From assembly GCF_947623445.1 (NCBI RefSeq), contig NC_135246.1, positions 16,723,856 through 16,787,855 of the forward strand: a DNA stretch of 64,000 bases. The letters run 5' to 3'. This document shows, in pieces, positions 9,185 to 61,240 of the stretch. The notes below the pieces were generated by a model that worked only from the letters and a program-made list of their open reading frames with translations, searched no databases and was not told the origin of the DNA. How positions within the stretch are numbered: the stretch's first letter is position 1; each line of letters starts with the position of its first letter. This DNA comes from Clavelina lepadiformis (Eukaryota; Chordata; Ascidiacea; Aplousobranchia; Clavelinidae). A program made the translations under genes and the position numbers.

Positions 9185-12100
9185 ATGTCTCTTCCGAAAC
9201 AATTAGCTTTGCTTCTGCTCTTCGTTCTACAGGCATCGGCAAGTGATCCATGTAAGTATTATGATGAAAGAGTAATTGAAACGTATCAGTTCAGTTTGAT
9301 AGCTTATAGCATGTGCACGTAACGTATACTTCATAATTCTACAAAAATGTTTTGCGGTATGTTTGTGTATTTACTGCTACCACAATCTGTAAGCAAAAAA
9401 ATCGTACAACAAAGAATTTTCAAGTTATTGTTATTAGTTACTAGTTATTATTATTTTTTAGTTTGTTTATGCTTTGAATCCTACAGCTATCAATCCTTGT
9501 GTGGTACCGGACCAATTTCCTTGTGATCGAAACGCGAAATGTTCCAATACTGCTCCCAACGAATTCTTTTGCACATGCAAAGAGGGCTACACAGGAGACG
9601 GGCAAACATGTTCACGTATGCGTGTATTTCTGTGTCTACAATCTACGCCTACAGCTAATGCAATCTACCGTATTTCGCATAACTGTAATATCCCGATGCA
9701 GAGTAATAAGTTTCAAAGTTTTGTAGATATCTTTCAAATTTATGCAGCAAAAATATCAACAGAGATTTCAATGTTTTTCAGCTTATTTTCAGCAGCCCCC
9801 GACGCCCCCGTTCAACCCATGTGACCTGATTGAGTGCAATCAATACGCGACATGTGTAATACAAGATAACGAGGTGACTTGCATTTGCAATCCTGGTTTC
9901 ATTGGTGACGGTGATACCTGTATAGGTAAGAAAATGATTTAACTTAGGCTGTTTTTTTTTGTGTCCAAGCTCACAATGCTTTAACTCACATTCACACAGC
10001 ATACACTCAAATAGTAGTTTATAATATCCGATATGTTTTTATTGAAAACAATGACGTTTTTTCAGTATATATCAATTTTAAATGAACAATGCTTGTTGTT
10101 CAGCTGAGCCTCCACCAAATCCATGCGAGCCGGACCCTTGTCACGAATTTGCTACATGCTTTGTACAAGACAATGAGGCAGGCTGCATTTGCAATCCAGG
10201 CTACGTTGGTAACGGCTTAATTTGTACAGGTTAGTTATCGCCAAACTTTATTTTAAATCTAAATTACAAAAAACCTGGTTAATCAAAGTTTTGCACGCAT
10301 ATCCATCCTATATAACTCTAAAGAATGATAAAATAGGCTATACTTCTTTAAGTAGTAAATATAACTGACCAAATACGCTACATGCTCCTTGCAACGTAAA
10401 GGTACATTTAAAATCAAGTCGTTTATTTCAGCTGAACCTCCGCCTGATCCATGTGATCCGAATCCCTGCCATCGATTCGCAGCATGCACACCTGAGAATG
10501 ACGCACCTCGGTGCACTTGCAATCCGGGTTACGTTGGCAACGGTGTAGATTGTCAAGGTATAAAAAATCGCTATAGTGCCATTGTTCTGAAACACCTTGC
10601 AAAACAAGAGATCAATAATATGGTTTCTTTCTGTCTCCATAGTCTTTAATCCATGCTCTACGGTGCGATGCGGTCCCAATTCGTTTTGCGTTCAAGGTCA
10701 ATGTAGATGTGTCGAAAATTACGAGCCAGATGCCAACGACAATTGCGTCCGTAAGTGAAAAATTTATTTGGTGCTTAGATTTGCAGATTTGCAAATTTCG
10801 ACGATATATAATATAAAATTTGTTGAGTTATTAAATCAACTTATTATATAATTTTTGAGTATAATTTAATTATAATTTTTACTTCAAGTCATTCCACCAC
10901 CAAATCCATGCGATCCAAGCCCATGCCATCACCTTGCAACATGCACGCCACAGGAAAATAACGTTGCACGGTGCATTTGCAACCCCGGTTACGACGGAGA
11001 TGGATTGAATTGCATACGTATGTCCACGTAGCATTACGTTACGTTATGCATTTCCAACTAGATATTTCAAAGGAAAAATCAAAGCAAAATTCGTCTAACG
11101 CGTCTTACGTGTTTGCAGTGCAAAATCCTTGCGCCGCAGTGCAATGCGGTCCGAATTCTGCATGCGTGCAAGGCAAATGCAGATGCGTGGAAAATTATCA
11201 ACCAGACGCCAACGGACATTGTGTTCGTAAGTTTGACGCATCCTACGATTTAACTACTACAGCTGCATGAATAAATTATCTTACGTTATTTTCCAATGAA
11301 GATGGTTTTTTTTTTTCAATACAAATACGATTATGTTGTATTAGGACGCGACGTGTGCAGTCCTAATCCCTGTCCTAGCCACTCCGTGTGTAAATCCCAC
11401 TACGGAACCTATCGTTGCAAATGCTACACCGGGTACTATGGCAGGAAAGGAAAGTGCTATCGTAAGTAGGCTATACAAACCTCGTGCTTCAAATAGTTCA
11501 TGTCATTAGGTAAGAGCTAATAAGCTTAAACCTGTACAGCAAGGGATCCTTGCGCTCATAATCCATGCCATGCAAACGCAAGATGTTCTCGATGGGGATC
11601 TGGACACAGATGCACCTGTAATACCGGCTACATCGGAGACGGAACTAATTGCGCCGGTAAGCATGTTTATTATGTGTGGAAAAATATTTTACGTCAACTT
11701 ACCAAGCATTACTAAAATCCTAACATCTGGTTTATGGTAGTGCTTGATCCCTGTAACTCCAGTCCATGTCATCATTACGCTACGTGTTCTGCATGGGGAA
11801 GAGGACATAAGTGCTCCTGCAACGAGGGCTATGTTGGAGACGGTACAAATTGCAGACGTGAGTATTGTACACCACCCTTTATTAAGAAAACGTATAATTC
11901 ATTTGAATTGAGGAGACTTGTTCTAATTAGGGGTCTAATTGTCACTTGCGTTTGTTTTCAGTTTTTGACCCATGATTATAAATGTGTTTCAGTGTGATCA
12001 TAAATCAGATCATAAATGTGTTTCTTGCAAATATTGGAATTTAACCATTACTTTTTCTGCAGTTTATAACCCATGTAGTTCCAACCCCTGCCACCAATAC

Positions 12101-14269
12101 GCATCATGCTCTCAACAGGGTGCCGGCTACCGTTGCACTTGTAACGCCGGATACGTCGGTGATGGTTCCAACTGTGCCGGTATAAGCTTTAACCCGATAT
12201 TCTTGTTTAATATTCTTTGACATCGACTTGCCAGCTGTAAATTAAAACTGTCGTTTCTGTTGATTTGTAGTGTTTGACCCATGTAGTACCAACCCTTGCG
12301 GTCAGTACGCCACATGCAGCCGACAGGGACACCGACATCGCTGTGCTTGTAACAGGGGATATGTTGGAGATGGAACAAATTGCAGAGGTAACTTAAATAT
12401 ACATCTGGACTCAATGCAACGGCTATTGTCCTTTATCTCACCACGGTAGAATCTGTCACGTTTTATTAGCGAATTTCGAAACTCATATTTCAATCTGTTA
12501 TCTATTGATATAAGCTTAAAAAGCATTACACGATTCATACTTAAATCAAGCTATTTTGGGCAAATCTGGCTGCGCACAAAACGCATGTTTACCGTTTTTT
12601 TCGTGTGTCTATCAAAGTATCACAAAACCAAATAACTAAATGTTGAAACAGTATATTTTACGTAGCGCCTTTTGTGACCAGTGCGTTTTCCATGTAGTTT
12701 TTGACCCATGCAGCAACTCCCGATGCCACAAAGACTCGAACTGTGTCACGTATGGTGGCAAGCCAAAATGCACATGCAAAGTCGGTTACATTGGAAATGG
12801 ATATCATTGCAAACGTAAGTAAAATCAGATGTACGGTGTAATGTAACTTAATCAAAGCAGCATGTTTGCAAAATCTCGGTAAGATCGGTGTCGCTTGCCT
12901 AATCCGTAAGTGTTACAAAGGAAACTGCGCTTGATTAAACTGTTTTTATATCGTACAGGCCGAAGCCCTTGCTATCAAAACAAATGCAGCCGGTACGCAA
13001 CTTGCAGACCACACGGCACTAGCTATACTTGCACGTGCAATCTTAATTATGTAGGAGATGGTAAAACTTGTGCAGGTAACAAACTACGTATGCAGTAAAT
13101 AGCTTGTCAAAACAAGAAAGACAAATTCTGATATTTGTTTCACGTACATGTGGAAAGACTTCTTTTCAAGTATCTTTTTATAGTTTTCGATCCCTGCCAA
13201 AATGCGCCCTGCCACCGAGACGCCACTTGCTCAAACTTCTTCGGTCGACACAAGTGCACCTGTAAACGGGGATATGTCGGCAATGGTGTCACTTGTTCTC
13301 GTAAGTAAAAGAAAACAAAGGCACAACCGGCACCAAAGCCAGTCTTAACCTTAACTGGAAGTCTGCCTAAGCATGAAAACGTGTTTTCTTTTCTTGCAGA
13401 TCCTTCTCCATGCTCCACTAACTACAATCCTTGCAGTCACTACGCCACATGCACGCCGAAAGGCGACAAAGCTTGGTGCGAATGCAAGCCTGGTTACAGG
13501 GGCAACGGAATACGTTGTCACCGTAAGTATAGTTTGTCTACATTCAATGTAACGGGGCTTTTGAGTCGAATAATCACAGTAGCTGCGTTGTTTAGGTGAC
13601 TATTGCCATAACCATCTGTGTCACGCAAATGCTCGATGTGTTCCTAAACTTTTTGGGGGTTACAGTTGTCAATGTAATAGGGGTTATCAAGGAAACGGTC
13701 GGCAGTGTGCAGGTAAGCAAGCGGTAGACGTATAATGGAAATTCAATTAAATTACAACTTGCTTTGACTCAGTATCCGATCACATTTCAAAACACTTAAC
13801 TTTGCGCAGTTTTCGATCCATGTCTAAACGCACCCTGCCACAGAGACGCCACCTGTACGTCATCTCAAGGGAGTTATCAATGCACTTGTAAAGCAAATTA
13901 CGAAGGCAATGGAAGATATTGCTATAGTAAGTAGTATAGACAATAAATAAATTATGTATTTAAAACAAAGCCCATAATATTAAATAAGTTTTTAATGCTT
14001 TCTTTCACTTTCTAAAGAGTCATGCCAGTATAGATGTGGTAACACGTACGATCGACACCACACTTGCCAATGCGACCAGTATTGTAAAAAGCACAATAAC
14101 TGCTGCCCGGATTTCTCTAAGTATTGTAAGTGTTGCCAAACATTGATTTTCCACTAAACGTGCATTTACCAATGTTTTTGGTAAAGTATTACTTATCATG
14201 TCTTATTTTCTACGTGCAGGCTATAAACGACACTCATACGCAAGGCCTTCTCAACACAGATCTTGGTAA
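9185..14269 (+). CDS. EGF gene A: secreted protein with 18 EGF-like modules and a C-terminal somatomedin B domain
   Basis: I assembled 21 exons: 9185-9251, 9487-9615, 9782-9925, 10104-10229, 10432-10557, 10643-10750, 10889-11017, 11119-11226, 11345-11461, 11540-11656, 11741-11857, 12063-12179, 12271-12387, 12698-12814, 12959-13075, 13184-13300, 13400-13522, 13596-13712, 13810-13926, 14018-14125 and 14220-14269. All introns are phase 1, and the product is 795 residues. Exon 1 is a signal peptide (LALLLLFVLQASA). Exons 2-19 each give one six-Cys EGF module, typically DPCxxxPCHxYATC...CxCxxGYxGDGxxC, the non-calcium-binding EGF_3 style. The modules in exons 6 and 8 are a shorter variant of 36 residues (CGPNSxCVQGxCRCVENYxPDA). 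Exon 20 is an eight-Cys somatomedin B domain (CQCDQYC, NNCCPDF) whose last Cys codon is split by the intron. The tail is basic and ends RSW. Likely an extracellular or matrix protein; function unknown. Confidence 0.88.
11962..11975 (+). pseudogene. Relic start of a lost EGF exon inside an intron of gene A
   Basis: Within the intron between exons 11 and 12, an acceptor (ttttcag) is followed by TTTTTGACCCATG, identical to the start of the real exon at 12698. After that the sequence becomes a small repeat (ataaatgtgtttc occurs twice) with no Cys pattern. It reads as a truncated, non-coding copy of an EGF exon. Confidence 0.5.
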
Positions 14270-14635: not shown

Positions 14636-14641
14636 AATAAA
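14636..14641 (+). terminator. Poly(A) signal of EGF gene A
   Basis: AATAAA lies about 370 nt after the stop codon of gene A and is the first canonical hexamer there. Confidence 0.55.
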
Positions 14642-18367: not shown

Positions 18368-21300
18368 ATGACCACTAAAGGAGCGATTTTTGCTCTCGCG
18401 CTGATCTATTTTCTCGGCGTAGCTCAATGCACTTACAGAGGTGGAAGGAAAATATAATTTTTTTGTAAAAAAGAAAACTTACCGTTAGCAAAGATTGCAA
18501 TAAAATACTTTCTTTAATATCTTGACATGAAAAGTAATGTTTACGTAATGTATATGACAATCCTGTATCTGCAAAGCAATGTTGAATAGAAACGATATTA
18601 AAATCGAAAAAATAATGTTTTTATCCTTAAACTTTTCAACACCAATTTCAACTCAAACCGCTAAACGATGGTTTCTCATGCAGTCCAGCACACGTGCAGC
18701 TACTGCGACAAAAACGCAGTATGTCGACGACATTACAACGGCTACGTTTGTATTTGCAAAGACGGATATTATGGATCGGGAGAGTGGTGCAAAGGTAAGC
18801 AAAAAAACACCTTTTTGGAAGCAAATTCGTCACAAAACCAATGTGTTTTCTGAATCCTTTAAAACCCTCTTTAGTTATCAATCCATGCCACAGTAATGCC
18901 TGTCATAGAGACGCACATTGCGTGCCAAACGGAGAACGTTACAGTTGTCGTTGTAAAGACGGATATGAAGGGGATGGATACGGATGTTCTGGTGGGTTTT
19001 CACGGCCAATTTAAAATATATAATATATAACAACTGACTGTACAAGAGTTGTACAACGAATTGTATTTAAAATATGTATGGAAAGTTATTTGGGCTATAG
19101 TGTACTTAAGAGTAGTGTTTATAATGGTGTAATGGTATAGTATAGTAATGGTGTTTATGGAAAAAAACTTATGTGAGAATGCCCAGCTACAATAACAGTT
19201 ATTAAACTTGTCCTGCCAAAAACATAAATAAAACTGCAATTCCAATAAAAATAAACAACCATCGAAAAACGTGAAACTAAAAATGACGATTTCGTGATTA
19301 AAAGTTTCTTGTGCGACTACGGGTCTAAACAGTTAATACGTGCTTTCGCAGTTTGCAGAATGTTTCTGCGTACGGTTTTGAGTCACGAATCCGATTTAGA
19401 CGGGTCCAAAATTTTCTGTATGTGCTAATGTCATATGTGTGTTGGCACAAACTTCAAATCGCGTTTTTGTTATTGTCGAATTTTTGTCGTAATCATAACT
19501 TTGTCAAACGAAAACTTTTTACTTTGTCTGCATCCCCACACTTAAAATGTTATTTTAACAAAATGCAGCACTATCAAACTTATCATAGGTTATTTGTGAG
19601 GTCGTAAGCATTTTCATTTTTAGTCGCCGACCCATGTCGATCGAATCCATGTCATCAACACGCAAGTTGTCGAAAAGGAATTGACTGGGACTACACCTGC
19701 GTTTGTAAACGGGGCTACAGAGGCGATGGACGATTTTGCGCAGGTTAGAATTGATGTCTAACGCACAAGTTGTAAATGATGAGTATACAAATAGGACTTA
19801 AATGAAACATATCATGGTATTATGAATCTATAAAAAGCTCGCTTAATCGCGGCCACGTACACTACTACATACGTATATACGATATACGTTTAGCCACAAT
19901 GGATCTAACAGATAAAATAAATCGTAATCTTACGAGAACATGTCAAACCTACAGTATATACATGTTTGAACATCACGTTATAATATATTGCACGCGATAA
20001 ATCACTCACTAAAACGTCACCAACATTACAAAACAACCTAATCACGTTAGTTTGATGAATTCTGCTGAATGTGAATTGAAATTGATGAATGAACAGTATA
20101 CGACCCATGTCAAGACGCACCGTGCCATAAAGACGCAACATGCACCAGCCATGGAGAATCCTACACATGTGCATGCAAAGATGGATACACAGGCAATGGA
20201 CAGTATTGTGACGGTGAGTAGCATTTTGTCCGCTATGAATCGTGCCAACAGTAACTTAATGTAAGTTTTTATTTGATATAAGATCTTATTAATAATAATG
20301 TCGATATAATAAAGGTCTTGTTGCTCATAAGAAGGTCTTATAATAATATTATAAAATACTGTAAAAGTTTTGATATAACAAAAGTAATATACTTGATATA
20401 AGGTCTCTGTAAACAAGTCCTAGAACACGAAATACCGACCAAATCATGACTTGGATTGAGAATGAAAGTTATTTAAAACATTTTTAAACGACTTTCGGCT
20501 ATATTAATAGTTACTTGGAAATACGACCGTTTCGTAGCTTCGGTGGTTTTAAGAAAAACAATCAGCGTTAAACTTAGTTTTCTTAGTAAGAAGAATAAAA
20601 ATAACTTTTGGTTAGAAGTTTAATATCCAACGAACATCGCGGAACGAAAATCTACGATCATCAATCTTATATTGGCTTAAGGGTCGGTACTTAATCTGTT
20701 TTCGTTTAGTTCATAGAAAAACGTGACTGTCTGCGTTTGCAAAATATTAATACAATAAAATCTACATAAACGATATAAATTTACACATAACCCGTTCCTA
20801 TGGTTTTTGCTCGTTGGCGCCAAAAACACAAAAACAAATTCTTCCTTGAGTCTGTTAATAAGAACTGCATGCTTATGTTTGTAGGCTTATTTCTTTCAGC
20901 TTCTCTTAAATAAATTTACATTTCTAACTGAGTTACAGTATCTTATTGCAAACTGTTCTTTTTAAATTGTTTTGTTCGACAAAAAACACTTTTCCTTTTA
21001 CAGTGCTAGATCCATGTAGATCGAATCCATGTCACCAACACGCAAGTTGTCAAAGAGGAATTGACTGGGACTACACCTGCGTTTGTAATCCGGGCTACAG
21101 AGGCGATGGACGATTTTGCGCAGGTTAGAATTGATGCCTTACAAATAACAGTAAAGCAATTTATGGTTTTTACTGCAATGGATTCCCTTTAACACTTCCG
21201 TATGTCGCAATGCATAAATAAGAAAAGATCTATGGTAATTCTCAATCCAAACGACATGTCAAACATGCTCTGCTATAAGCAAAATAACAGCATGCTCGAA

Positions 21301-24300
21301 TCACTACCAATTTCACGTTAAAAACTGTTAAATTATAATCACATGTGACCAAAACTCAAACAACAACACTTATGAACCATGTAAATTGTTCAGTATACGA
21401 CCCATGTCAAGACGCACCGTGCCATAAAGACGCAACTTGCACCAGCCATGGAGAATCCTACACATGTGCATGCAAGGATGGATACACAGGCGATGGACAG
21501 TATTGTGATGGTGAGCACCACTTTGCACGCTTATGAATCGTGACAGCACAAACTAAATATAAAGGTCACTGGGACCTGGAATACTAAAATACCTACAGAT
21601 ACTAGAAATTTAACAGACTTACCATCACAATCTTACCTTGTAGTCATGAACTCATGTGACCCTCATCCATGCCACAAATACGCCACTTGCACCAAAGGAG
21701 CGGAATACCAGTATCAATGCGACTGTAACGATGGGTACACGGGAGACGGAAGGTTCTGTGTAGGTACGAACAAACGTGATAACCGAAACTATATTGACAA
21801 TTTTTACAGCAAATTTTGGCACAACGCTATGGCACATTTATCTAAATCTTTCATTTGTTCGAATATTTATTTTGAAAAGGTACAATTACAAAAGCTTTAA
21901 TCTAAGATACCAGCATTTAAATATAATTGTATGGTTAATTGCATGACGGCAATTGTTAAAATCGTTACTAGACGAGCGTGATAACATTGAGATAATAAAT
22001 TAAAATATGTTTCCTTATAAACTTTCTGCAGAGCTTGATCCATGCCAGTCCAGTCCGTGTCACGACTACGCAACTTGCCACGCCACTTATGGTGGTCAAT
22101 ACACTTGCACGTGTAATAGCGGTTACGCCGGAGATGGAAGTTATTGCGAGGGTAAAATTTTATTTCTTTATTATAGATTACAATATAACATGTAATACCG
22201 CAAACGTCTTCATATAAAGTATTTAAAGTCCATAACGCGTGCAAAGAGTTATAGGGTCTATGCTAAGTGACAAACCTTATTAAGTATCATCTTTTCATGC
22301 AGAGATTAATCCTTGCCATCCAAACCCATGTCACCACTACGCGACGTGCAAACGTGCCTACGGTGGCAGACATACTTGCACATGTAATAGCGGATACACT
22401 GGCGATGGTGGCCACTGCGAAGGTAAACAAAAACACGTTTAACTCTGTATTTTTGACGAAAAGGAATTAAGCAAAGTCACCGGAAGACGTCTAAAATAAA
22501 AAATTTATTCTTGAATGTTTAACATTAAGTGACTTGTAAATTGACAGCAAGACATTTGTCATAACTTAAAACCTTTCCGAAGAAATCTGACAGATTTTCA
22601 AAGCAATTACTTTTCGTGTTCGTCACGTTTTTTGTAATCAATGTCACGTTTTCAGAGTTAGACCCATGCCATTCAAGTCCATGCCACCATTATGCTACAT
22701 GTGAACGAGCCTATGGCGGAAGATACATCTGTACATGTAATAATGGTTATGCTGGTGATGGAAAGTACTGTGAAGGTATAGCAACCGCAAATATTTTCCT
22801 GCTAAAAGTTTAAATAACTTATTTTTCGACAGAACCGCCAAAAAACTATGCTCTATAAAAAAAATACAAAAACACATTTTGATAGTGCGATTTGCAAAGA
22901 GAGTGCAATAATGCAAAAACGTGCGTATTTGGTTGCAGTGTTAGACCCTTGCCATACAAACCCTTGTCACCGATACGCCACTTGCACTCGTGGTTACGGC
23001 AGCCAGTACACATGCAGTTGTAACAAAGGCTACGTGGGCAATGGACGCCGTTGTAAAGGTATATGTGTACACCAGAGAGTTGGTGAATTCATGTCCAACT
23101 TCTTTGCTTAAAAAGACGATTTGAATTTCTGCATTCAGTGTTCGACCCGTGTGAAAATGCCAAGTGTCATAAGCACGCCAAATGCAATCGGTTCGGAAGG
23201 TTCTACAAATGTACTTGTAAAACAGGATACAAGGGAAACGGGAAAAAGTGTCGACGTAAGTGTTTGAAATGTCAGGGCGTAGGCTGAGAGGACGGTTTTG
23301 GGAATGGTCTTCCATTACTTTTTCACACCTTTTGCATCTATACTAGTTAATTTAGTCTATTTTAAAAAGGAAAAAACCCATGCAGTGGCTACCAATGCAG
23401 TCGTTACGCCAAATGTGTGGTGGAAGGTTACAAAGCCGTCTGCAAATGCCAACCTGGTTACCATGGCAACGGGAAGGTCTGCCGAGGTGTGAGAGTTTGT
23501 CGATGCAGTTTTTTGCAGGCCACCGTTACTCAGCCCGTGTTGTTTTTTAAAGTCTTATTGCACCATTTTTAATGTAACGTGTGTAATTTATTCGGCAGTG
23601 GACAAATGCTACAATCATAAATGTCCTGTCCATTCCACATGCTACCCGAACGTGCTGAAAGGACGCGTATGCCGTTGCAACGATCCTTACTACGGAAATG
23701 GAGGCGTGTGCTACTGTGAGTTGTAATCACAAGAATAATAATTACGGTACAATTAGCGAAAAAGTTATAATGAGCTTATTAAAATTGAGTTATTTGCGGG
23801 AAACCACCAATTAAACTTATTTTAGTATTTTGTGGCTATGTAATGCCAATTACGTAAAGCTCAAGCTATGCTTTTAATTACGTCAATTACGTTGCTAAGC
23901 AACGCTCACATGTGCTGTAAATAATCGGTGCGCCCATAATATCCAAGGACATTTCACCAGAATTAATCACATAATGGCAATTCGACTTCAGTGCTGCTAT
24001 AGTAGCTTAAGTGTCATTAAAAACACACTTTTATCCCACGGTGATTCAGTTGCATCGGTGATTCAGTTGCATTAAACTTAAATCGCATTTGTTCAAAAAA
24101 TTAAAACAAATTTTATCACGCAAAAATGGCAACTATTCCAAAACAGAAAAACAAAACTGAAGTTTACTCTTCTAGATTTGTACTCTACGAAAACACACAG
24201 CTAGGAATGTTTGAAGATAACTCTGTGGTTGTAAAAAACGTGACCGACGAAAGGTCTCTGCTGACCGAAATACCACAAGCATTCCCTGGGGAAGCTATTT

Positions 24301-25600
24301 TAGCAACAACCTAATCATGAATGTGATATTTTTAGTTAATGCTAACACGTTCAGAATTATCAAATTGCATTTTCAAGCTCTAATTGACGCACAAAACACT
24401 CCCTCTCCAGCTATTTTCCTTTGCTCAGCAATCATATAAGCAATCCAAAGTGATGACGATCGTTCTTAATGATGACGTTCTGCTTCGAAGCTAGTCACAG
24501 CTCATAAGTGACACACGTCTCGGCCACTAAATGATTTTTCATGAAAGTTACAAATCATTTTTGAATTTTAGGAACAAACTAGGTTTCATTTGAGACTTTG
24601 CATTCTTAGATGTATACTATAACATAAGCTTTCCTTAAAATTGCTGTTGCAGCGTAAACGTCTTACTCAAAAATATAATATCAACGAAACGATCTGAAAA
24701 GTTAGTTTATACTCTTGTTAGAGATAAACAGCGATTTATCCAGAACAATGGGACAGCGATGTTATAATATTTGTGGCCTGAGTTATGTTGAGAGCGATGT
24801 CACTTATTTTTAGTAAGTGTTTCATGAAAAAATAAACTTCATATTGGAATTTCACGATAGGAGTCCTTTGAATGCTGTATTAAATTATTTTAAAAACAAA
24901 CGTATCATTGGTATAGCCATCATGCGAAAACGTATATGTGAGTTATCATAGCCCTAATTTTCAAATGTGTTAAATTACATGGAAAGAAAAGAAACCAACA
25001 GTCTAAAACTCTAATTGCAACTTCTCAAAAATAACTTAAAAATGCGAAAAAAGGTGTTTTTCAAGAGATACAGCAACTTTGGTCGAGGGCCTGACCATCA
25101 AAACAAACAATTAAATCTGAAAACATACTTAATTAGCATGAAAGAATGATAATTCCACTCGAGCTAAGGTATGCCTTTAAATGTTTACATTCCATAAAAT
25201 ATGCTTGTAGTTGCGATGACATGACAACATGTAATTTAGCATGCACGCATCAACATCAAACCGCTTTCTAAACGCCACACAGGTAACGGTCCTTCAAAAG
25301 ATAAGATTCTAAACAAGATTGACTTGTTACATTTAGCTAAATACTCTTGCCAAGCCCGATGTGGAACATACAAGAAAAAATTTCCGTGCCAGTGTAACAC
25401 TTACTGCAAAAAGTACAACAACTGTTGCAGAGATTTCAAAGAAGAATGTAAGTAACTTATGCTTGTAACCAAGGTTATTTCTTTATACTTTGAAACGGAC
25501 CATTAGTTCAAGGTTTTTAGCATCTGCATTCGGTTTTGTTTAATTTTTCTTCTATACTTTGTCCGCAGGCATACGACCTCGTCGATATGGGCGTCACTGA
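18368..25600 (+). CDS. EGF gene B: secreted protein with 14 EGF-like modules and a C-terminal somatomedin B domain
   Basis: Seventeen exons: 18368-18440, 18684-18794, 18875-18991, 19624-19743, 20097-20213, 21004-21123, 21394-21510, 21644-21763, 22032-22151, 22303-22422, 22656-22775, 22939-23058, 23139-23255, 23370-23486, 23599-23715, 25337-25447 and 25569-25600. They total 1869 nt (622 residues), every intron in phase 1. Exon 1 encodes a signal peptide ([15 protein letters not shown]); its donor gtggaa is weak. Exons 2-15 each encode an EGF module, several with the run DPCxSxPCHxYATC, CTCNxGYxGDGxYCE. Exon 16 is a somatomedin B domain with eight Cys (CQCNTYC, NNCCRDF), and its last Cys codon is split as in gene A. 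The tail is [10 protein letters not shown]. The acceptor of exon 5 (gaatgaacag) is weak. Exons 4-5 and 6-7 are a tandem duplication. Gene A is the closest relative in domain order. Confidence 0.88.
19624..21510 (+). repeat. Tandem duplication of an EGF exon pair in gene B
   Basis: Exon 4 (19624-19743) and exon 6 (21004-21123) are nearly identical, and the match runs on into the donor side of the intron (gttagaattgatg). Exon 5 (20097-20213) and exon 7 (21394-21510) differ at only about three bases. The introns between them have diverged much more than the exons. The unit length is about 1.3-1.4 kb. Confidence 0.85.
20268..20410. repeat. Degenerate short repeats in a gene B intron
   Basis: Variants of a gatataa unit (at about 20275, 20301, 20373 and 20396) and of ggtctt recur over some 140 bp of very AT-rich sequence. 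It looks like a decayed low-complexity tandem repeat. No known family recognised. Confidence 0.35.
23716..25336. other. Large 1.6-kb intron of gene B before the somatomedin B exon
   Basis: This intron is unusually long for the locus. The open frame at 24126-24314 shows no domain or splice context. In both A and B, short introns separate the EGF exons, so the long intron may mark where the somatomedin B exon was joined or where modules were lost. Confidence 0.4.
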
Positions 25601-25929: not shown

Positions 25930-27600
25930 CCATTGCCTTTACATTGGTAAGTGTCACAGTTATGCTTAATATGTGTTAAATTTAACAAGAAAAATTTAAT
26001 AAGTTTTGCCTTAAGCTTAAACCTTAAGCTTCGATAAACCATTATACTGTACCATCAAGTATACAAAGTTGCTGTACCAGGCACGTACGCGGTACGAGCC
26101 CAATTTGTACATTATACACTGAATATGCTTGCATCACAGCGCTGACCATGCTAATCAACTTGTGTCACAAACCTCGACACAATAAACGTATATGTGTAGC
26201 TAGGTAGCTATTATAACTTATTAGTTAATATATAGATATATATATATTATTCTTTTTGTTAATAAAAGATAGCACTTCTTTACAGAAAGCTTATACTGTG
26301 TGCTGTCACAACTGGTCAAATGGTGTTATTACACAAGAAAATTACCGAGCGTTTTCATTGATGTCTTTAAATTGTTACTTGGCGCCAACTAACGAAGATT
26401 TAGCTAGAACCATAAAAACACCAGCTGTCTCAAGTAAGTATACTCTAAGCACTTTAATCAAACAAAATTAGCAAGACTACCTCCATAGACGAAGAACACA
26501 TATTACGCGTTTGTTTTTGTTTTCAAAATCGCGTTTTGAAAACGACAACGCGTTGATCATTAAATTCGGGAGTTAAGTTAGGTAAGTAATGTTGGACGAA
26601 TAATAACATAGCTGGGAATACAAATCACTCTAAAACACACACTAACTTATTCGTATATGATGACGTTCGATAATGATGCTTTTAGTACACAGACCATACA
26701 ACTTATAAAAACATCATTTTTTTAACAACACTTCATTTTAGTACAAAATCAAACAAGATATTATACAATTATTTTCTCAGGTGTCGTAAAAGATCTTATA
26801 GTTTAAAAAATGGTTTCTGGCTTTATATATCATATAGCCTTAGATACTGAAGACGTTATGCATAAAATGAAATAAACTAATTGTGATAAAAGAACTTTCT
26901 CAAAAAAGGGTTAATCGACTTATAAATAATTTCAAATTAGAAACGAAATCAAGGCACGATTAAAAGAAATGCTGTCACGGTAATTTACCAATGTGCATAA
27001 CTATATACTTTCGGAAAACCCCACAAATATAGCTTTGCTACGATTACCGATGAATAAATTCGCTAAAGATATTGATAACTAACAAAATCCAAACTAGCGT
27101 GACAACGAGAAATGGTAACACAAATTAAATTTAGGACAACTTCTGGCTTATACACAACAACATATCGACACGTTCCTGAAGAAAATAGAAAACTCAAACG
27201 CAAAGAAATACAGAAAAAGCTAACATCATCAACGTTTGAATCACTATGACTTAAACTATATTTATTAGATGATTGACTTCCAAGAATTTAACACGTTTTT
27301 TAAACCGCACACAATCACTGGAAAGACAAATTAACTGCAAGCAAACGTGATAGATGAAGTCGTTTGCATTTTTAATGTTCACACTGTTTCTAAATAAAGA
27401 CACCGATTGTGATAAAGGTTGGAAAAATAACAAATTTTCGTCAATCTCATTCTGCAACGAACGGAAACACCAAACTGAGAAACATGGCAAAAAGTTTGGG
27501 ATTTCTGGTCATGGTCGCCTTCAAGTTTCATCGTTCTTTCAAAAGCTGCAAGATATAAGCCAAGTATGCAAAAAGATATTGCAGAAATTAGATGTTAAGT
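25930..27600. repeat. 5' flank of gene C, duplicated at 30360-31530
   Basis: Several blocks here recur downstream in the same order. The block around 26045-26150 (aagtata...gctgta, cgcggtacg, aatttgtac) matches 30400-30490. The block with gtagctagaac/tagctagaacc near 26400 matches 30600. The block near 27095-27175 (gcgtgac, aaatgg, aacaactTctggctt, tcg.cac) matches 31380-31450. No coding exon is certain. A short frame with ATG at 27354 and a possible phase-1 donor after 27417 is a weak candidate signal-peptide exon for gene C. Confidence 0.55.
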
Positions 27601-27784
27601 CCACCTAAAGTTCATTGGAATGTTTTTATAACAGCATTTAATGAAAACGGTTCCTTTGTCAAATCTTACTGAAAAATTTAGATAATTAGTATTCCGTTTC
27701 AAGTATGTTAAAAACAAGTGTTTTTGTCAAATGTATGTAATATTATGCATCATTTTCCTATAAGCTGCATTGTTTCATTTTCAG

Positions 27785-28763
27785 AAGACCACTGCCATGG
27801 AAGCTGCGAATACCCGCAAGTGTGTGAATATCATCATGGAAGCTATAAATGTGTTTGTGCGCCGGGATACCATCAGCATGGATATTCATGCAAACACACA
27901 ATCGGTAGGATATACAACCTTAGTGGAAATGCAGCACTATATAAACAAGCAAGATATGTATAGCAACGTATGATTATGCTTAAATAACGCCTTTGCATCA
28001 ACCTATTCATGCAAGTAATGCATTTCTAGAGTAGGTTGTAGGTATGGTTACAATGCTTATCAAAAATTGATAAATTTGCAGAAGATCCCTGCTCCTATTG
28101 CCATCCTCAGGCGACATGCAAATCTTTCAAGATAGGACATGGTCGCTACTGCGCTTGCCTTCCTGGCTGGAGAGGAAACGGGAAAAGATGTTACCGTATG
28201 TTTTGTTTTTTTTATCGCGCAAAATTCGTTTTATTGTCTTTCATTTTCACTCATTATGTACATTAAGCCAACTTTAAAAAACGTGTTGCGCCTTTGGTTT
28301 CGCTGTTTTTACAAATTCTTGTCTTGATATCAGCGGACAACTGTTATCAAAACAAATGCCCTAAGAACAGCAAATGCTTTCCGAAATACAACGGCTATGG
28401 ATACTCTTGTCGTTGCAAGCATGGACATTACGATTATAAATGTCATTTCGGTAAGATATCGGATGGATGTTTGTGTTGAACATGTCTTTGATACTATTCC
28501 TAAACGGTTTATTGATTTTTCTTAGATGTTAGATGTTACCGAAGGGAGAATTGCCATCATTACGTCCGTAAGTCTGAATTAAAAAAAAAAACTTCTGTGA
28601 AATAGATTTACATCTTCTTTGCATTTTATTTCTACAACTAGATATAGATACTAAATTCAATAATTCTGTAAGTAATGCAGAACAATAGAAACTAGATTTT
28701 TTCGTAAACATGGTTTTTAGTAATATAAACAATTTTTACGCAGACTACCACCATCGACGTTAA
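27785..28763 (+). CDS. EGF gene C: secreted protein with at least three EGF-like modules (5' end not fixed)
   Basis: Five exons are clear: 27785-27904, 28082-28195, 28334-28450, 28526-28567 and 28744-28763, all phase 1 and ending at TAA. The first three each give a divergent EGF module: EDHCHGSCEYPQVC, then DPCSYCHPQATC, then DNCYQNKCPKNSKC. The fourth is a 14-codon Cys-bearing linker (RCYRRENCHHYV). The last adds a His/Arg tail (HYHHRR). The signal exon is uncertain. The best candidate is ATG 27354 to 27417, which would keep the frame (158 residues in all) and start MKSFAFLMFTLFL, but its donor gttgga is poor. Thus the gene could be 5'-incomplete or decaying. It is related in style to genes D and E, with GHGRY and GNG motifs. 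Function unknown. Confidence 0.68.
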
Positions 28764-44000: not shown

Positions 44001-44131
44001 GAGTATAAATGTTTGCTCAAACTGATAACTTGATTTGCGCTTGTAACCTGTTGCAGTACCAGTATGTTGTAAAGTGTCGGAGGACATTGGAACCAAAAAT
44101 AATGATATTTTTGCGTCTTTTTACAGATTGA
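41098..44131 (+). CDS. EGF gene F: secreted protein with eight EGF-like modules and a partial ninth
   Basis: Ten exons: 41098-41164, 41300-41422, 41581-41694, 42054-42170, 42280-42402, 42530-42655, 42772-42891, 43389-43661, 43817-43924 and 44127-44131. They sum to 1176 nt (391 residues), phase 1. The signal peptide is MRVLSVLVFLFCCAGG. Exons 2-7 carry one module each (for example NHCDGRCHQQAKC; LVCQRHLCHAQADC; DKCFQNSCHGEAIC). Exon 8 is 273 nt and holds two modules with no intron between them. Exon 9 is a half-EGF-like Cys cluster (MCSYPRCP...CIPRCKC). The last exon adds only Asp and the stop. If the exon 9 donor (gtaaat) is not used, translation ends almost at once (GKstop), so the true 3' exon is uncertain. 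Genes G and H share this module order. Confidence 0.85.
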
Positions 44132-48420: not shown

Positions 48421-48506
48421 GTCTTTATCAGATTTATTCCAAACTTACACCAGCGCTGGGTAGATTTAGAGATTACAGCTCGAGGTTTGCTTGGTGAAAG
48501 CTAAAA

Positions 48507-50359
48507 ATGCGTGAATTTAATTTTCTTGCTTTCTTAATCTGTTATACAGTAGTGATTGCAACCGAAACGGAAGGTACGGTTATCATTATAATACTTTTAG
48601 TGTGTGTGAACAATATACCTGAAAAACTGTCATTACGTAAATGTTTTTAAGTAATTACGAAATCAAAGAAATTCATTCTTTAGTATATTCAAGTTCCGTA
48701 TTTCAGCTGATTTGAATAAATTTCAGGGATGACTCCAAACCCTTGCGCAAGACACCCCTGTCATCACTTTGCTGGATGCAAACCTAACGGGAGAGACTTC
48801 ACGTGCAAATGCCTCGAAGGCTACTTTGGCGATGGATACTCATGCGGTCGTAAGTTGATTCGTCTTTATTTAAATTTTCAAAATTGCAATATGATGCTCA
48901 TGTAGGCAGTAGGAAAACCTGTGTATTGATTTAGCACGATTAGCCGAGTGAAGAAGATACGAGATAAATATAGCAAAATGTTCATCTTGCCAAAGGTATC
49001 AATCATTGCGATAATCGTTGCCACCAACGCGCCAAGTGCTCGATACGAGACGGAGAATACCGATGCGTCTGTGACGATGGATTCGTTGGATCGGGATTCG
49101 GCTGCAAAAGTGAGGTTGATCGAGAAAACAAAAAATAGCTTTGCGTTCACCATCTATCGCTCATGGCAACCAAACCAACAAAATAGTACAGCACATTAAC
49201 TAATACTTTAATTGTTTTCGTTTTAGAAGAGTCGTTAGTTTGCCAGAGGCATCTTTGCAACGCACAAGCAAATTGCGACGCAAGTAAACATCGCAAGTGT
49301 TCTTGTAAGCCTGGTTTCTGCGGCAACGGACGCTTCTGCTCAAGTAAGTTGAAATACGAAAACAAAATTGTTCCAGGTCGTAAATGGGACAAAAAAAATA
49401 GAAATTTACTTAGACTAACAAAACGATCCCGGGTAATTGCGCGCAATTCAATATTTCAGGAGATAAATGCAACCACAACATTTGCCACGATGAGGCTGAT
49501 TGTATACCTGGTGAACACGGATGTGCTTACGATTGTGTATGCAAAACGGGGTTTACAGGAAACGGTTTAACTTGTACAGCAAGTACGTGAAGGTCTAGAT
49601 TTATGTTACCACTGTTACAACGATAATGGTAAAACATGCATGTGAGCATGAACAGCCGAATCCAATTGAACAACACCACTCTTTAATTAATGCGCATTTA
49701 CGTATGTGCCCATTCCAATCGATTGACTTGTTCTACCATTTATCAATGCACCCAAGTAGCTGGCACACCTCGTGGGCAACCTCGCCATATATGTGGAACT
49801 TGTCATAAATATGCAACATGCATTGTTGCTGGTGATGGAACAAGATACTCGTGCAGATGCAAGGATGGTTACTGCGGAACTGGAAGCGTTTGTCGGGAAG
49901 AAGAAAGTGAGCAAATCGTTTAATATGTTTGCCGAAACGGTGGTAAAATAGATTTTAGATAATAGCTATAGTTTGTTCGGTATTTGACGTACGTTAACGA
50001 CAGTTGCAAGGGAAATCACCATGTTTAAACCGTTGTTTTTACTCATATATATTTTGTTTCCATTACAGGAATGTGTGATTACCCCCGTTGTCCGGCCCAT
50101 GCAAAATGTGTTGTCAATAAACATACCTGCATACCAAGATGCAAATGTTCCACTACACATAACAATGAAGGATGCGGTAAGGAAACTTGTATACCTTCAT
50201 ACAGTTTGTTAAATATTATATCGCGAGCATCATCAACCAAGAACAGAGCAACGCTTACTTTTTCTAACAATTGTTCCTTCTATACACCCTTGAATTGTCT
50301 ATGGTTGTTTTGTGAAATGAACTCATCATATTTGCGTTTTCTTCGCAGATCAATCTTGA
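48507..50359 (+). CDS. EGF gene G: secreted protein with five EGF-like modules and a partial sixth
   Basis: Eight exons: 48507-48573, 48727-48849, 48996-49109, 49227-49343, 49460-49582, 49757-49906, 50069-50176 and 50349-50359. They total 813 nt (270 residues), phase 1. The signal peptide is MREFNFLAFLICYTVVIA. Exons 2-5 match F exons 2-5 one for one. F exons 6 and 7 have no counterpart. Exon 6 (150 nt) corresponds only to the second half of the two-module exon of F and H (HICGTCHKYATC). It begins at a weak acceptor, cccaag, and the DNA just before it keeps traces of the lost first half. Exon 7 is the partial Cys module (MCDYPRCPAHAKC, CIPRCKC), and the end is DQS. No canonical AATAAA follows closely; AGTAAA at 50473 is possible. 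Confidence 0.83.
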
Positions 50360-56248: not shown

Positions 56249-58162
56249 ATGCGAGAATTCATTTTCTTCGTTTCTGTATTCATTTACTCTGCGGCGACTG
56301 CAAATGAGATAACAGGTACGGTGATGTAACTTATTGACATTAAAAGTCAACCAAAACTATGTTTGGTAACAAATGTTTTAAAAAAGCTTTTATGACAATT
56401 ATCGAGTCAAACTAAATTTGTAATGCTTATAAAAGTAAGACAAATAAATAAAACTCGTTTTCATTGTTATCAGGAAGACTGCAAGATTTATGCACTAGCC
56501 ATCCATGTCATCATTTCGCAACCTGTACTTCCGACGGACAAGATTACACGTGCACCTGCCAGGATGGCTTCTTTGGTGACGGATTTCTTTGCGGTCGTAA
56601 GTTGATTAATCACTAACCACTTTTATAGCTATAATTGCAACAAATAGATGTCAAGTTCAGCCAAAACTTCTAACACTCTTAAGGTATAAACCATTGCGAT
56701 GGACGTTGTCACCAACAAGCTAAGTGCGAGGAACAAGACGGAAGACACAGATGCGTCTGTAACGAAGGATTTGTTGGATCAGGGTTTGGTTGTAAAAGTG
56801 AGTTCCAAAATATATTTTTTTTTAATTTTCTTATGCGTTCAATAAACAAATTTGTGCTAACATCAACAACATTGCCAGAAAATCTCAATGAATATGTTGG
56901 TTAACTTCGTTTTTAGGAGAATCGTTAGTCTGCCAGAGGCATCTCTGTCACGCACAAGCAGATTGCGACGCGAGTAAAGATCGCAAGTGTTCTTGTAAAC
57001 CTGGTTATTGCGGCGACGGACGATTTTGTACCAGTAAGTTGGAAAACAAAACAAACCGTTTGTAGGTCATCAAAACTGCGGCAGTAAAATTTTATTTATT
57101 CTAATTAATAAGTCAGATGTAACAAATGGACGGTTGTTCATTTCCAGGAAATAAATGCTACAGCAATAACTGCCACAAAGATGCCGTATGTATACCTCAT
57201 GAACAAGGCTGTAACTATGAGTGTCGATGCAAACCTGGGTTTACAGGAAATGGTGTAACTTGCGCGGCAGCAGGTATGACCAAAAGTGTTTAAATAACGT
57301 ACATGTTGCAGTCGAAATGTTAATGGTACGCAGAATGTACAAACATGCGATATGGAATGCTTTACAAGACATAATTCGCATAATACTCGGCAATATTATC
57401 ACCTAAGCCTGGAGCGGCTTTCCAAAGAGACACAACGCTATTTCAAACGCATTACGAGGCTGTCTCGATTTGTTTTTCAGAAAATAAATGCCTCAACAGC
57501 CGTTGCCATAGAGATGCCACGTGCCAACCACATGACAACGACAACGGATACTCTTGTACATGTAACAAAGGATACTACGGCGATGGGTACCAATGCCGGC
57601 GAGTAGTTACTAAATCTCTTAGCTTACCTCGCCATCTATGCAGAACTTGCCACAAACACGCAACTTGCTTTATTGGCCGTGATCAAAATAAGTACTCTTG
57701 CCGTTGCAAAAAAGGCTACTGTGGAACTGGAGATATTTGCCGAGACAAAAAAAGTAAGTTGAGTAAATAACCTTTAACTTTTACGAAACCAAACTGAGGT
57801 GTTTGTTTGTTGGAAATTCTGTTAACCTATTTATACATGCCATAGGAAAATGACGGTATTTAAATAGCTATAATCATGTTGGAAATTGATTTCTTTTCAG
57901 AAATGTGCGGTTACCTTACGTGCCCTTCCCAAGCGAAATGTGTAGTTCACGAAATCAGCTGCCTTCCCAGATGCAACTGTAAGAAAATTTGGTTCTTTAT
58001 ATTTGTAAGGTTATTTTTCGCAGTAACTCTCACAAAAAGTCACAACCTATTATAATTATTGGTCATTTTATTTTATTAACTTTTGCTCTAGATTTGCTAG
58101 GCGTTATAGCATAGTTGAAAATTTAGCGTATGTTTTGTCCTTCCTTTACAGATCGGCTTTGA
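56249..58162 (+). CDS. EGF gene H: secreted protein with six EGF-like modules and a truncated last one
   Basis: Eight exons: 56249-56315, 56474-56596, 56684-56797, 56917-57033, 57148-57273, 57481-57753, 57901-57978 and 58152-58162. They total 909 nt (302 residues), phase 1. The signal peptide is MREFIFFVSVFIYSAATA; an in-frame upstream ATG at 56138 exists, but the alignment to G and the hydrophobic core favour 56249. Exons 2-5 match those of F and G, and exon 4 is almost identical to F exon 4. Exon 6 holds two modules, as in F. Exon 7 is cut short (78 nt against 108) at RCN, and the final exon adds YRL. F exons 6 and 7 have no counterpart. Extracellular protein of unknown role. Confidence 0.84.
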
Positions 58163-58283
58163 TAACATACCATAGCATCCAAAGAGGAATGCCACGAGCT
58201 TCTGGCAAAACTTCGTATTTTTATTCTCTTTTTTACAACCGTTCTTGTATATTCGTGTGATTGTAGACAATTCTTGTATTTCC

Positions 58284-58289
58284 AATAAA
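58284..58289 (+). terminator. Poly(A) signal of EGF gene H
   Basis: AATAAA about 120 nt after the gene H stop codon. Confidence 0.55.
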
Positions 58290-60174: not shown

Positions 60175-60180
60175 TATAAA
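60175..60180 (+). promoter_or_regulatory. TATA box of EGF gene I
   Basis: TATAAA inside ttttttataaacac, 97 nt before the gene I ATG. Confidence 0.45.
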
Positions 60181-60271
60181 CACTCCGGCGGTCTGGTTCC
60201 ATTTCACAATTAGTTTGCCAAGTTTGCAAGTAAAAACTTTGTGTTTTTGAAACCAACGATCCTCTACAACC

Positions 60272-61240
60272 ATGTCTCGACTTATCACTTTGTTTCTGTT
60301 GGTCTCTTCGGTGGCGCTAGCTTATGGAAGTTATGGTTATGGTTATGGTGAGTTTAATAGAGTGTCGTTTAGTATATTAAAAGAATTTTAAAAAAAACTG
60401 TATCTTACGCTACTACTCCGAGCTTTAGCTATTCATTTGTTGCTTTCAGATCATTGCTATAATAAGGTTTACCACAAAACGTGCCACCCAAATGCTGTGT
60501 GCAAGAAATGGTTTTTCAGCTATAGATGCGTGTGCAAGAAAGGTTTTGTTGGAAACGGATACCACTGCCAGCGTAAGTAAATTTTCAAATTTCTAAATTT
60601 TAGAAAAATATGCGACACATGAACGAACCAACATGTTTGACCTTCATAAACAAGACAATTTTCTGTCTCCAGCAATTTGCCAATGTCCTCCATATTCCAA
60701 ATGTTTCTACAACATACTGAAAGGGTATTTTTGCAAATGCAATCCAGGTTTAATCAGACGTGGAAACAGTTGTGTCGGTAAGATACAGAACGACGTTAGC
60801 CGCTGTGTAAAGTTAATAGAATATTTTTGAAACGTAACTATACGTTTCCAAAGTTTCAAGGCTCTCAGTGAAGGAAATTAGAAATTAAATGTAAAGATAA
60901 ACAAATAAACACTTCTTTTGTTTCAGATCCCTGTTACAGCAAACACTACCAGCATGGTTGCCACAAACATGCCGTGTGCAAAAGGTGGGGTCTTTCCTAC
61001 AGATGTTCGTGCAAATACGGATACCACGGAAATGGTTACGACTGCAAAGGTATGTAGCAGTGTATGATCATTTATTAAAAGGATTACATTATGACATTAT
61101 CTTGCTGTTTCCATGTTGAAGTTTTTAAAGAATTTTAATAGATTTGTTTTACTTAAAAGTATTAAATTGTATTTACGATAATTAATTCCACACTTGGCTG
61201 TTTACATATACGTCATATACCTATAGGCCATGCTTATTAA
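60272..61240 (+). CDS. EGF gene I: small secreted protein with three EGF-like modules
   Basis: Five exons: 60272-60347, 60450-60572, 60673-60777, 60927-61049 and 61227-61240. They total 441 nt (146 residues), phase 1. The signal peptide is MSRLITLFLLVSSVALA, followed by a short Gly/Tyr run (YGSYGYGYG) unlike the other genes. Modules 1 and 3 are related to each other (DHCYNKVYHKTCHPNAVC; DPCYSKHYQHGCHKHAVC, each with YRCxCKxGFxGNGYxC). Module 2 is divergent (ICQCPPYSKC). The last exon is inferred from an acceptor ctatag followed by GHAY and TAA. It is short, and its acceptor is only moderate, but an AATAAA soon after supports it. Confidence 0.8.

What the first reader, a model, noticed from the sequence alone, without database searches (positions are those of the whole stretch)
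9185..61240. A nine-gene, single-strand cluster of secreted EGF-module proteins
About 52 kb holds nine head-to-tail genes that each consist of a signal exon, phase-1 EGF exons and a tiny basic terminal exon. The number of modules ranges from 3 to 18. I know of no described system with this exact organisation. It may be the undescribed system in this window: a rapidly evolving extracellular repertoire.
Basis: partly seen in the sequence, partly recalled or inferred. Interest (0 to 1): 0.8.

Follow-up and report, generated by a model that had tools for sequence, protein, structure and literature searches.

The report
Sea-squirt cluster of calcium-free EGF proteins
A sea squirt carries nine neighbouring genes for predicted secreted chains of small disulfide-locked EGF beads that lack the usual calcium-binding signature, and three of them may staple neighbouring beads together, which makes them candidates for glue, tunic or other matrix proteins.

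Summary
The cluster is real. The window matches chromosome 7 of Clavelina lepadiformis. Nine same-strand models (9185-61240) give complete spliced frames with only GT-AG, phase-1 introns and 67 intact EGF modules (3-18 per gene) plus two truncated ones. 'Rapidly evolving' is not supported: dN/dS between paralogous modules is 0.05-0.31 where defined, with module gain/loss.

Two features stand out. (1) 0 of 67 modules match a calcium-binding EGF pattern, against 159 of 190 modules in 17 other fetched loci of this genome; they are more cationic and, in most genes, richer in Tyr and His. (2) In genes 6-8, seven-cysteine modules come as adjacent pairs, the extra cysteine in the C5-C6 loop of one and the C3-C4 loop of the next, suggesting inter-module disulfide staples. 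Genome searches with one module of each type gave strong matches only here.

Best reading: calcium-independent structural or adhesive matrix proteins, working like mussel Mfp-2/Pvfp-5 or octopus octovafibrin, without shown kinship. Function is inferred; expression is untested.

The parts
9185..14269 (+). G1: 795 aa, 21 exons: signal exon 9185-9251, 18 EGF exons, Somatomedin B exon, basic tail exon
14018..14125 (+).
   Evidence: Pfam PF01033 38.8 bits, E 1.1e-9, 37.5 bits in the spliced protein; PDB matches to an endoribonuclease SMB E 1.3e-9 and vitronectin E 0.0035
14220..14269 (+). G1 terminal exon, basic tail
18368..25600 (+). G2: 622 aa, 17 exons: signal exon 18368-18440, 14 EGF exons, Somatomedin B exon, basic tail exon 25569-25600
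19611..21531 (+). internal two-module repeat in G2 (e3,e4 and e5,e6), dS 0.10
25337..25447 (+).
   Evidence: Pfam PF01033 34.3 bits, E 3e-8, 30.5 bits in the spliced protein
27354..28763 (+). G3: 158 aa: signal exon, 3 EGF exons, short Cys/His/Arg exon 28526-28567, basic tail 28744-28763; weakest signal exon and weakest EGF match of the nine
33373..34625 (+). G4: 174 aa: signal exon, one truncated EGF exon 33596-33664, 3 EGF exons, basic tail 34576-34625
37240..38896 (+). G5: 210 aa: signal exon, 5 EGF exons, basic tail 38871-38896; 17.9% Lys and 13.2% Tyr after residue 20
41098..44131 (+). G6: 391 aa: signal exon, 9 EGF modules (e7 and e8 share exon 43389-43661), terminal exon adds one residue
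48507..50359 (+). G7: 270 aa: signal exon, 6 EGF modules, terminal residues DQS
56249..58162 (+). G8: 302 aa: signal exon, 6 EGF modules plus a truncated seventh (57901-57978), terminal residues YRL
60272..61240 (+). G9: 146 aa: signal exon, 3 EGF exons, terminal residues GHAY; 13.5% Tyr and 11.1% Lys after residue 20
42068..42395 (+). G6 e3-e4, odd-cysteine pair (extra Cys in the C5-C6 loop of e3 and in the C3-C4 loop of e4): predicted inter-module disulfide
   Evidence: genome search with e3
42547..42887 (+). G6 e5-e6, second odd-cysteine pair; both modules absent from the G7 and G8 models
43547..43923 (+). G6 e8-e9, third odd-cysteine pair
   Evidence: genome search with e9
49241..49575 (+). 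G7 e3-e4 odd-cysteine pair
49792..50175 (+). G7 e5-e6 odd-cysteine pair
56931..57263 (+). G8 e3-e4 odd-cysteine pair
57639..57978 (+). G8 e6 with the truncated e7, counterpart of G6 e8-e9; e7 keeps the extra Cys but lacks the last two Cys of an EGF (read by eye; the script counts e6 only)
42047..42178 (+). G6e3 exon with a few flanking bases, 95% identical to 56910-57041 (G8e3); dS 0.11 against 0.74 pooled: local gene conversion, or local constraint

Best explanation
Shown from sequence: nine tandem genes encode predicted secreted proteins made almost only of EGF modules (Pfam EGF_3/EGF type); none of the 67 intact modules carries the calcium-binding pattern that most EGFs of the other fetched loci carry, and as a group they are cationic and richer in Tyr and His. 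Inferred: they are calcium-independent structural or adhesive matrix proteins. The EGF beads are held by disulfides and expose basic and aromatic side chains that bind surfaces, polysaccharide (tunic cellulose) or each other by cation-pi contacts, and possibly by Tyr oxidation. The long members (G1, G2) add a C-terminal Somatomedin B domain and, like G3-G5, a basic tail as assembly or docking ends. In G6-G8 adjacent modules are predicted to be covalently stapled by an extra inter-module disulfide, which would replace the rigidity that calcium gives ordinary EGF rods. The likely place of use is adhesive secretion, tunic or stolon matrix; the data do not tell which.
For: Secretion: a hydrophobic signal exon before each of nine groups; after residue 25 the best 19-residue hydropathy is 0.77 or less in all nine, so no membrane span; Pfam finds EGF-type families and, in G1 and G2, Somatomedin B, besides a match to the EGF-like ADGRF3_N family in G1 and G2 of which no single stretch passes. 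No ZP match in the window. Calcium: 0 of 67 cluster modules against 159 of 190 modules in loci L012-L028, 16 of the 17 having modules; EGF_CA reaches its Pfam cut-off in none of nine. Charge and composition per gene against per locus (9 against 16): net charge per module P 0.0008, Tyr P 0.002, His P 0.0017, Lys+Arg P 0.0006. pI 8.1-9.3 in all nine after removing 20 residues. Odd cysteines: of seven A-type modules six are directly followed by a B-type module by script and the seventh by the truncated module of G8; no A- or B-type match in the non-window loci held. Precedents, read as passages: Mfp2, Sfp1 and Sbp9 use EGF repeats and ascidians are listed among animals with EGF-containing adhesives (PMC13348336); Pvfp-5beta has two EGF modules with exposed Lys and Tyr and coacervates without DOPA (PMC9314366); octovafibrin has 29 tandem EGFs, none calcium binding by PROSITE, and is the load-bearing thread (PMC10336842). 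Purifying selection fits a structural role better than a recognition arms race.
Against: No expression, proteomic or localisation data. Tyr enrichment is uneven: G7 and G8 modules (3.6 and 4.5%) are at control level and G1 (5.9%) is within the control range, so the glue-like composition fits G2-G5 and G9 best. The control loci were fetched by similarity to one cluster module, and two of them (L015, L016) are near-copies, so they are neither random nor fully independent. Three control loci have a positive net charge (L012 +1.56, L022 +0.5, L028 +2.5), above G6 and G8 (0.22, 0.17), and L028 has 9.1% Tyr. The profile of 29 cluster modules hits Notch 1 and uromodulin EGFs first in the PDB and Pvfp-5 only weakly (E 0.0012), so there is no sign of kinship with mussel proteins. 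A review states that DOPA-forming enzymes could not be localised to ascidian adhesive organs (PMC4275875, passage). The staple is inferred from sequence only, and the three paralogues that show it are not independent.
Confidence: 0.45

Rival explanations
1. Egg-coat (vitelline coat) proteins for sperm binding and self/non-self recognition, like HrVC70 of Halocynthia.
For: HrVC70 is a secreted ascidian product with 12 EGF-like repeats, a candidate for self-recognition by polymorphism, and a sister species has a duplicated module (PMC9265791, passages). Module number differs among the nine genes.
Against: HrVC120 and CiVC57 carry a ZP domain; none of the 57 ZP matches of the genome lies in the window, and one (C1:23901039) lies beside EGF exons at C1:23899496. 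The review says that HrVC70 has two Lys residues; the nine proteins are Lys richer (3.5-17.9%). dN/dS 0.05-0.31 where defined gives no sign of diversifying selection between paralogues.
Confidence: 0.12
2. Blood-cell or mucus defence proteins: cationic EGF chains that bind microbes or are cross-linked in clotting and tunic wound repair.
For: Cationic and predicted secreted; ascidian blood cells make DOPA/TOPA polypeptides (PMC4275875) and a phenol oxidase thought to end in the tunic (PMC9395347), both read as passages.
Against: Pfam finds no lectin or protease domain in any of the nine; purifying selection between paralogues.
Confidence: 0.15
3. General extracellular-matrix EGF proteins with no special material role, derived from a Sushi-EGF-Somatomedin B gene.
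For: A gene at C7:448.5-451.8 kb has signal, Sushi, six EGF, Sushi and Somatomedin B, with a second copy beside it; the nine EGF modules of this locus are the best outside match for 22 of 67 cluster modules while being 9 of 181 unique control modules.
Against: The cluster has no Sushi domain and no calcium pattern; the Somatomedin B domains of G1 and G2 score closer to each other and to domains on C1 and C8 than to that of L012, so descent from this gene is not shown.
Confidence: 0.2
4. The odd cysteines of G6-G8 make inter-chain links (covalent dimers or networks), as recalled for the odd-cysteine EGFs of teneurins, not intra-chain staples.
For: Odd-cysteine EGFs are known to dimerise chains (recalled, no call); scallop Sbp9 keeps free thiols that drive assembly (PMC13348336, passages).
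Against: The extra cysteines occur in directly adjacent modules, always in the same order and in the two loops that (recalled from fibrillin EGF pairs) face each other; e5 and e6 are both missing from G7 and G8.
Confidence: 0.3
5. Some of the nine are not separate genes: exons are joined across the proposed boundaries by alternative splicing.
For: All introns are phase 1, so exons of different units could be joined without breaking the frame.
Against: Each unit has its own signal exon, stop and an AATAAA (eight units) or AGTAAA (G7) within 366 bases (weak evidence in AT-rich DNA).
Confidence: 0.08

Closest known systems
Mussel foot protein 2 (Mfp-2) and Pvfp-5beta
   Same: Secreted tandem EGF modules in a byssus, with exposed Lys and Tyr shown for Pvfp-5beta (passages of PMC9314366 and PMC13348336)
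   Different: Mollusc; no Somatomedin B and no such cluster known to me (recalled); no special sequence kinship
Octovafibrin (octopus egg tether)
   Same: Long run of non-calcium EGF modules as the main material of a load-bearing extracellular thread (passages of PMC10336842)
   Different: C-type lectin ends instead of Somatomedin B; a single protein; no odd-cysteine pairs mentioned in the passages read
HrVC70/HrVC120 and CiVC57 (ascidian egg coat)
   Same: Ascidian secreted tandem EGF, module duplication between species
   Different: ZP domain there, none here; HrVC70 has two Lys residues
Sushi-EGF-Sushi-Somatomedin B gene at C7:448.5-451.8 kb of the same genome (L012)
   Same: Signal, EGF_3-like basic modules, C-terminal Somatomedin B, same chromosome
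   Different: Two Sushi domains, calcium pattern in 7 of 9 modules of the locus, Pro-rich insert in the Somatomedin B domain
Oikopleura house proteins (oikosins) with EGF domains
   Same: Tunicate extracellular matrix proteins with EGF modules and duplicated families (passages of PMC3390340)
   Different: EGF and calcium EGF domains mixed with lectin, CCP and other domains in the passages read

Membership tests
EGF-like domain (Pfam EGF / EGF_3) | Six cysteines in EGF spacing; match over the curated cut-off | tested here: met
   8 of 9 spliced proteins over the EGF_3 cut-off, G3 below it (23.4 against 28.5); of four single modules scanned two were over the EGF_3 cut-off, one just below (28.0), one at the EGF cut-off (21.5); 67 modules fit the spacing, 13 of them with one extra Cys
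Calcium-binding EGF (EGF_CA) | Acidic/amide residues before Cys1 and C-x-D/N-x4-F/Y-x-C (pattern recalled from PROSITE) | tested here: not met
   0 of 67 in the cluster, 159 of 190 in control loci; Pfam EGF_CA over its cut-off in 0 of 9 proteins
Somatomedin B | Eight-cysteine pattern over the Pfam cut-off (23.1 bits) | tested here: met
   G1 and G2 only: 38.8 and 34.3 bits, 37.5 and 30.5 in the spliced proteins; not found in G3-G9
Ascidian vitelline-coat EGF/ZP proteins (HrVC70 type) | C-terminal ZP domain | tested here: not met
   PF00100 over the whole genome: 57 matches at E 0.01, none in C7:16723856-16787855; none in the nine proteins
Ascidian vitelline-coat EGF/ZP proteins (HrVC70 type) | Gonad expression and polymorphism between individuals | not testable with these tools
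   No RNA-seq or second haplotype on hand
Mussel Mfp-2 type adhesive EGF protein (as a way of working) | Secreted tandem EGF, basic, Tyr/Lys rich | tested here: inconclusive
   All nine basic, pI 8.1-9.3; Tyr 12-14% and Lys 9-18% in G3, G4, G5, G9; G2 9.6% Tyr; G1, G6, G7, G8 3-6% Tyr
Mussel Mfp-2 type adhesive EGF protein (as kinship) | Sequence kinship closer than to other EGFs | tested here: not met
   Notch 1 and uromodulin rank first; Pvfp-5 (7qab) is near the end of the 60 listed of 86
Mussel Mfp-2 type adhesive EGF protein (as a way of working) | Presence in an adhesive secretion, DOPA | not testable with these tools
   Needs proteomics
Rapidly evolving recognition repertoire | dN/dS above 1 or excess replacement | tested here: not met
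   0.05-0.31 where defined; G9e1-e3 and G6e1-G8e1 undefined by saturation; loops were not tested apart and variation within the species was not tested

The most novel reading that the evidence does not exclude
G6-G8 represent a calcium-independent way of building a stiff EGF rod: consecutive modules are joined by a disulfide between the C5-C6 loop of one module and the C3-C4 hairpin of the next, and the two-module unit is what is gained and lost in evolution. The whole cluster would then be a lineage-specific kit of tunicate glue or matrix proteins in which calcium-dependent EGF chemistry was replaced by disulfide staples and cationic/aromatic surfaces.
Probability: 0.3. Interest if true: 0.65.

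Novelty: new variant of a known kind. Interest (0 to 1): 0.47.

Why it matters
The protein basis of tunicate glue is largely open; [quoted passage not shown] A compact cluster with a clean chemical signature gives named genes to test for glue, tunic and stolon matrix in a chordate. If the inter-module staple is real, it is a simple way to stiffen EGF chains without calcium, and it would link loss of the calcium site to gain of a covalent joint in one gene family.

Tried and rejected
Rejected: chance (0.23 patterns per resample, 60 found); tRNA and Rfam content (0 and 0); ZP egg-coat membership; membrane anchoring; kinship to mussel adhesives; diversifying selection between paralogues. Descent of the Somatomedin B domains of G1/G2 from the L012 gene is not favoured by pairwise scores, for which only nine loci supplied candidates.

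Weak leads kept apart: a CACGT core lies 70-180 bases before the start codon in 6 of 9 genes against 17% of random 110-base stretches (binomial P 0.0013), but the word was chosen after looking at the upstream stretches and four overlapping words were tried, so it is only a hint of shared regulation. TATA-like sites at about -100 in 3 of 9.

Not run: structure prediction (the odd-cysteine pairs lie in separate exons, so the spliced pairs do not read letter for letter from the DNA), fold searches, scans of viral, metagenome or prokaryote collections (no bearing on an animal gene family).

Papers: only passages found by term were read, in PMC10884593, PMC9395347, PMC13348336, PMC8849226, PMC9265791, PMC3390340, PMC4275875, PMC9314366, PMC10336842, PMC10794152, PMC3439447 and PMC10962819; all others were seen as listings. 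The ascidian adhesive paper cited there (Cheng et al. 2022, Marine Biology) was not read.
Full report
What and where. The window is contig 7 (16,723,856-16,787,855) of an assembly of 209.06 Mb in 95 contigs. Contig lengths 28.78, 25.73, 24.62, 20.77 and 20.45 Mb for C1, C3, C5, C6 and C7 agree to 0.01 Mb with chromosomes 1, 3, 5, 6 and 7 of Clavelina lepadiformis (28.79, 25.74, 24.62, 20.77, 20.45 Mb; total 210.1 Mb in 102 scaffolds; PMC10884593, passage).

Gene models. A strict EGF pattern occurs 60 times, only on the + strand and only between 9498 and 61045; Markov resamples gave at most 1. A scan for signal exons gave a candidate close before each group, and five other ATGs elsewhere in the intergenic stretches. 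With acceptors and donors chosen by score in phase 1 and terminal exons read from the sequence, nine spliced frames end in a single stop, all introns are GT-AG and phase 1, and all products are basic after removal of 20 residues (pI 8.1-9.3). In G4 and G5, 6 of 8 intact EGF exons end inside the last Cys codon. Intact modules: 67. G4 starts with a four-Cys truncated module and G8 ends with a truncated one. No stretch after residue 25 reaches a 19-residue hydropathy above 0.77. Pfam on the nine proteins gives EGF-type families, Somatomedin B in G1 and G2, and a match to the EGF-like ADGRF3_N family in G1 and G2 of which no single stretch passes.

The exons at 14018-14125 and 25337-25447 are Somatomedin B domains; 27 matches to that family occur in the genome at E 0.01 or better, these two included. 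They are 62% identical to each other. The tails of G1-G5 are basic, those of G6-G9 are not. One EGF per short frame is ordinary: most EGF loci fetched from elsewhere look the same, except arrays such as those on C3.

Chemical signature. A calcium-binding EGF pattern (recalled from PROSITE) fits 0 of 67 cluster modules and 159 of 190 modules of loci L012-L028, of which L013 gave none. Per gene against per locus, net charge, Tyr, His and Lys+Arg are higher in the cluster (P 0.0006 to 0.002). Limits: the control loci were fetched by similarity to one cluster module; L015 and L016 are near-copies; three control loci are positively charged; G7 and G8 are not rich in Tyr.

Odd cysteines. In G6, G7 and G8 some modules have seven cysteines. 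Type A has the extra Cys in the C5-C6 loop (G-Y/F-C-G), type B in the C3-C4 loop. The order is ..ABAB.AB in G6..ABAB in G7, and ..AB.A in G8, where the last A is followed by the truncated module that keeps the B-type cysteine but lacks the last two of an EGF (read by eye). So 6 of 7 A-type modules are followed by a B-type module by script and the seventh by this remnant. No A- or B-type match was found in the non-window loci held, which gave 223 six-Cys matches (overlapping loci counted more than once). The paralogues share ancestry, so they are not independent; within G6 alone the chance of the arrangement is 0.012. If the cysteines of the signal part are left out (two, one and none), G6, G7 and G8 keep 60, 40 and 44. 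From established knowledge of calcium-binding EGF pairs (recalled), the C5-C6 region of one module packs on the C3-C4 hairpin of the next, so a disulfide there is plausible; it was not modelled or measured.

Singularity and origin. Genome searches with G6e3 (A-type), G6e9 (B-type) and G5e5 gave strong matches only in the cluster (three, three with one weak, and two); for G6e3 twelve weak matches follow, some of them in the cluster (E 3.9e-4 and worse). Searches with G9e3, G8e1 and G5e4 rank cluster modules first but then run into ordinary EGFs, from the third place on. Of 67 modules, 28 are closest to a module of their own gene, 35 to another cluster gene and 4 to one of 194 control modules; a module of another cluster gene beats the best control in 55 of 67. 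The best outside locus is L012 for 22 of 67, although it supplies 9 of 181 unique control modules. L012 holds a Sushi-EGF-Sushi-Somatomedin B gene and part of a second copy whose Sushi domains were not looked at. This suggests, but does not prove, descent from such a gene; the Somatomedin B scores do not favour it.

Evolution. Between paralogues dN/dS is 0.10-0.30 in five pooled comparisons; G1e5-e7 gives 0.05 and G9e1-e3 is undefined. dS is 0.7-1.5 for G6/G7/G8 and G4/G5, so these are old copies, and blastn at E 0.001 aligns little of the non-exonic sequence of G6, G7 and G8 outside the e2-e4 block. Exceptions are the two-module repeat in G2 (dS 0.10) and G6e3/G8e3 (dS 0.11; 95% over 132 bases), the latter looking like gene conversion although it is only 33 codons. 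So module number changes while module sequence is conserved; 'rapidly evolving' does not hold at the amino-acid level between paralogues. Variation within the species was not testable.

Function. The combination predicted secreted, calcium-free, disulfide-dense, cationic and in part Tyr/His-rich resembles in kind mussel Mfp-2/Pvfp-5beta and octopus octovafibrin (passages), and one paper lists ascidians among animals whose adhesives contain EGF-like domains (PMC13348336). [quoted passage not shown] I therefore favour structural or adhesive matrix proteins, with adhesive, tunic or stolon use undecided, over egg-coat recognition (no ZP domain) and defence. Predicted secretion, lack of the calcium pattern and charge rest on sequence; surface binding, tanning, assembly through Somatomedin B and basic tails, and inter-module staples are inferred.

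Novelty. The listings of searches showed no description of such a cluster in a tunicate, and those of one search no inter-EGF disulfide staple; the two papers opened for that question report no interdomain bonds in PfRIPR and cite an agrin link between other domains (passages). Subscription literature is mostly not held. I rate it a new variant of a known kind.

Noticed in passing
G000:C3:6781669-6792573 (minus strand); L021 5444-9973: Matches in one open frame of 3,817 aa made of tandem EGF repeats at 123-base spacing, and a frame of at least 1,523 aa of the same kind of repeats about 30 kb away in L021: long, uninterrupted, very similar EGF arrays.
   Followed up: no
L012 2522-5780 and 9123-9818, L013 1701 (C7:448-458 kb): Sushi-EGF-Sushi-Somatomedin B gene with a second copy beside it that has very similar EGF modules and a Somatomedin B-like exon; Sushi domains of the second copy not checked.
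   Followed up: partly
L015 and L016 (C5:17.71 and 17.74 Mb): Two nearly identical multi-EGF gene copies about 24 kb apart, a recent duplication or an assembly duplicate.
   Followed up: no
G000:C1:22.944-22.978 Mb and C8:16.681-16.688 Mb: Groups of Somatomedin B exons.
   Followed up: no
G000:C1:23899496-23901179: EGF exons beside a ZP match, a candidate vitelline-coat type gene of this species.
   Followed up: no
G000:C4:23.98-24.96 Mb: Several ZP matches with in-frame stops, probably a family of ZP gene copies read across an intron or decayed.
   Followed up: no
window 1050-2018 and 2150-2788: A THUMP-domain frame and a caspase-domain frame left of the cluster, unrelated to it.
   Followed up: no
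window, upstream of G1, G2, G4, G5, G7, G9: CACGT core 70-180 bases before the start codon in 6 of 9 genes; found after looking, so only a hint of shared regulation.
   Followed up: partly
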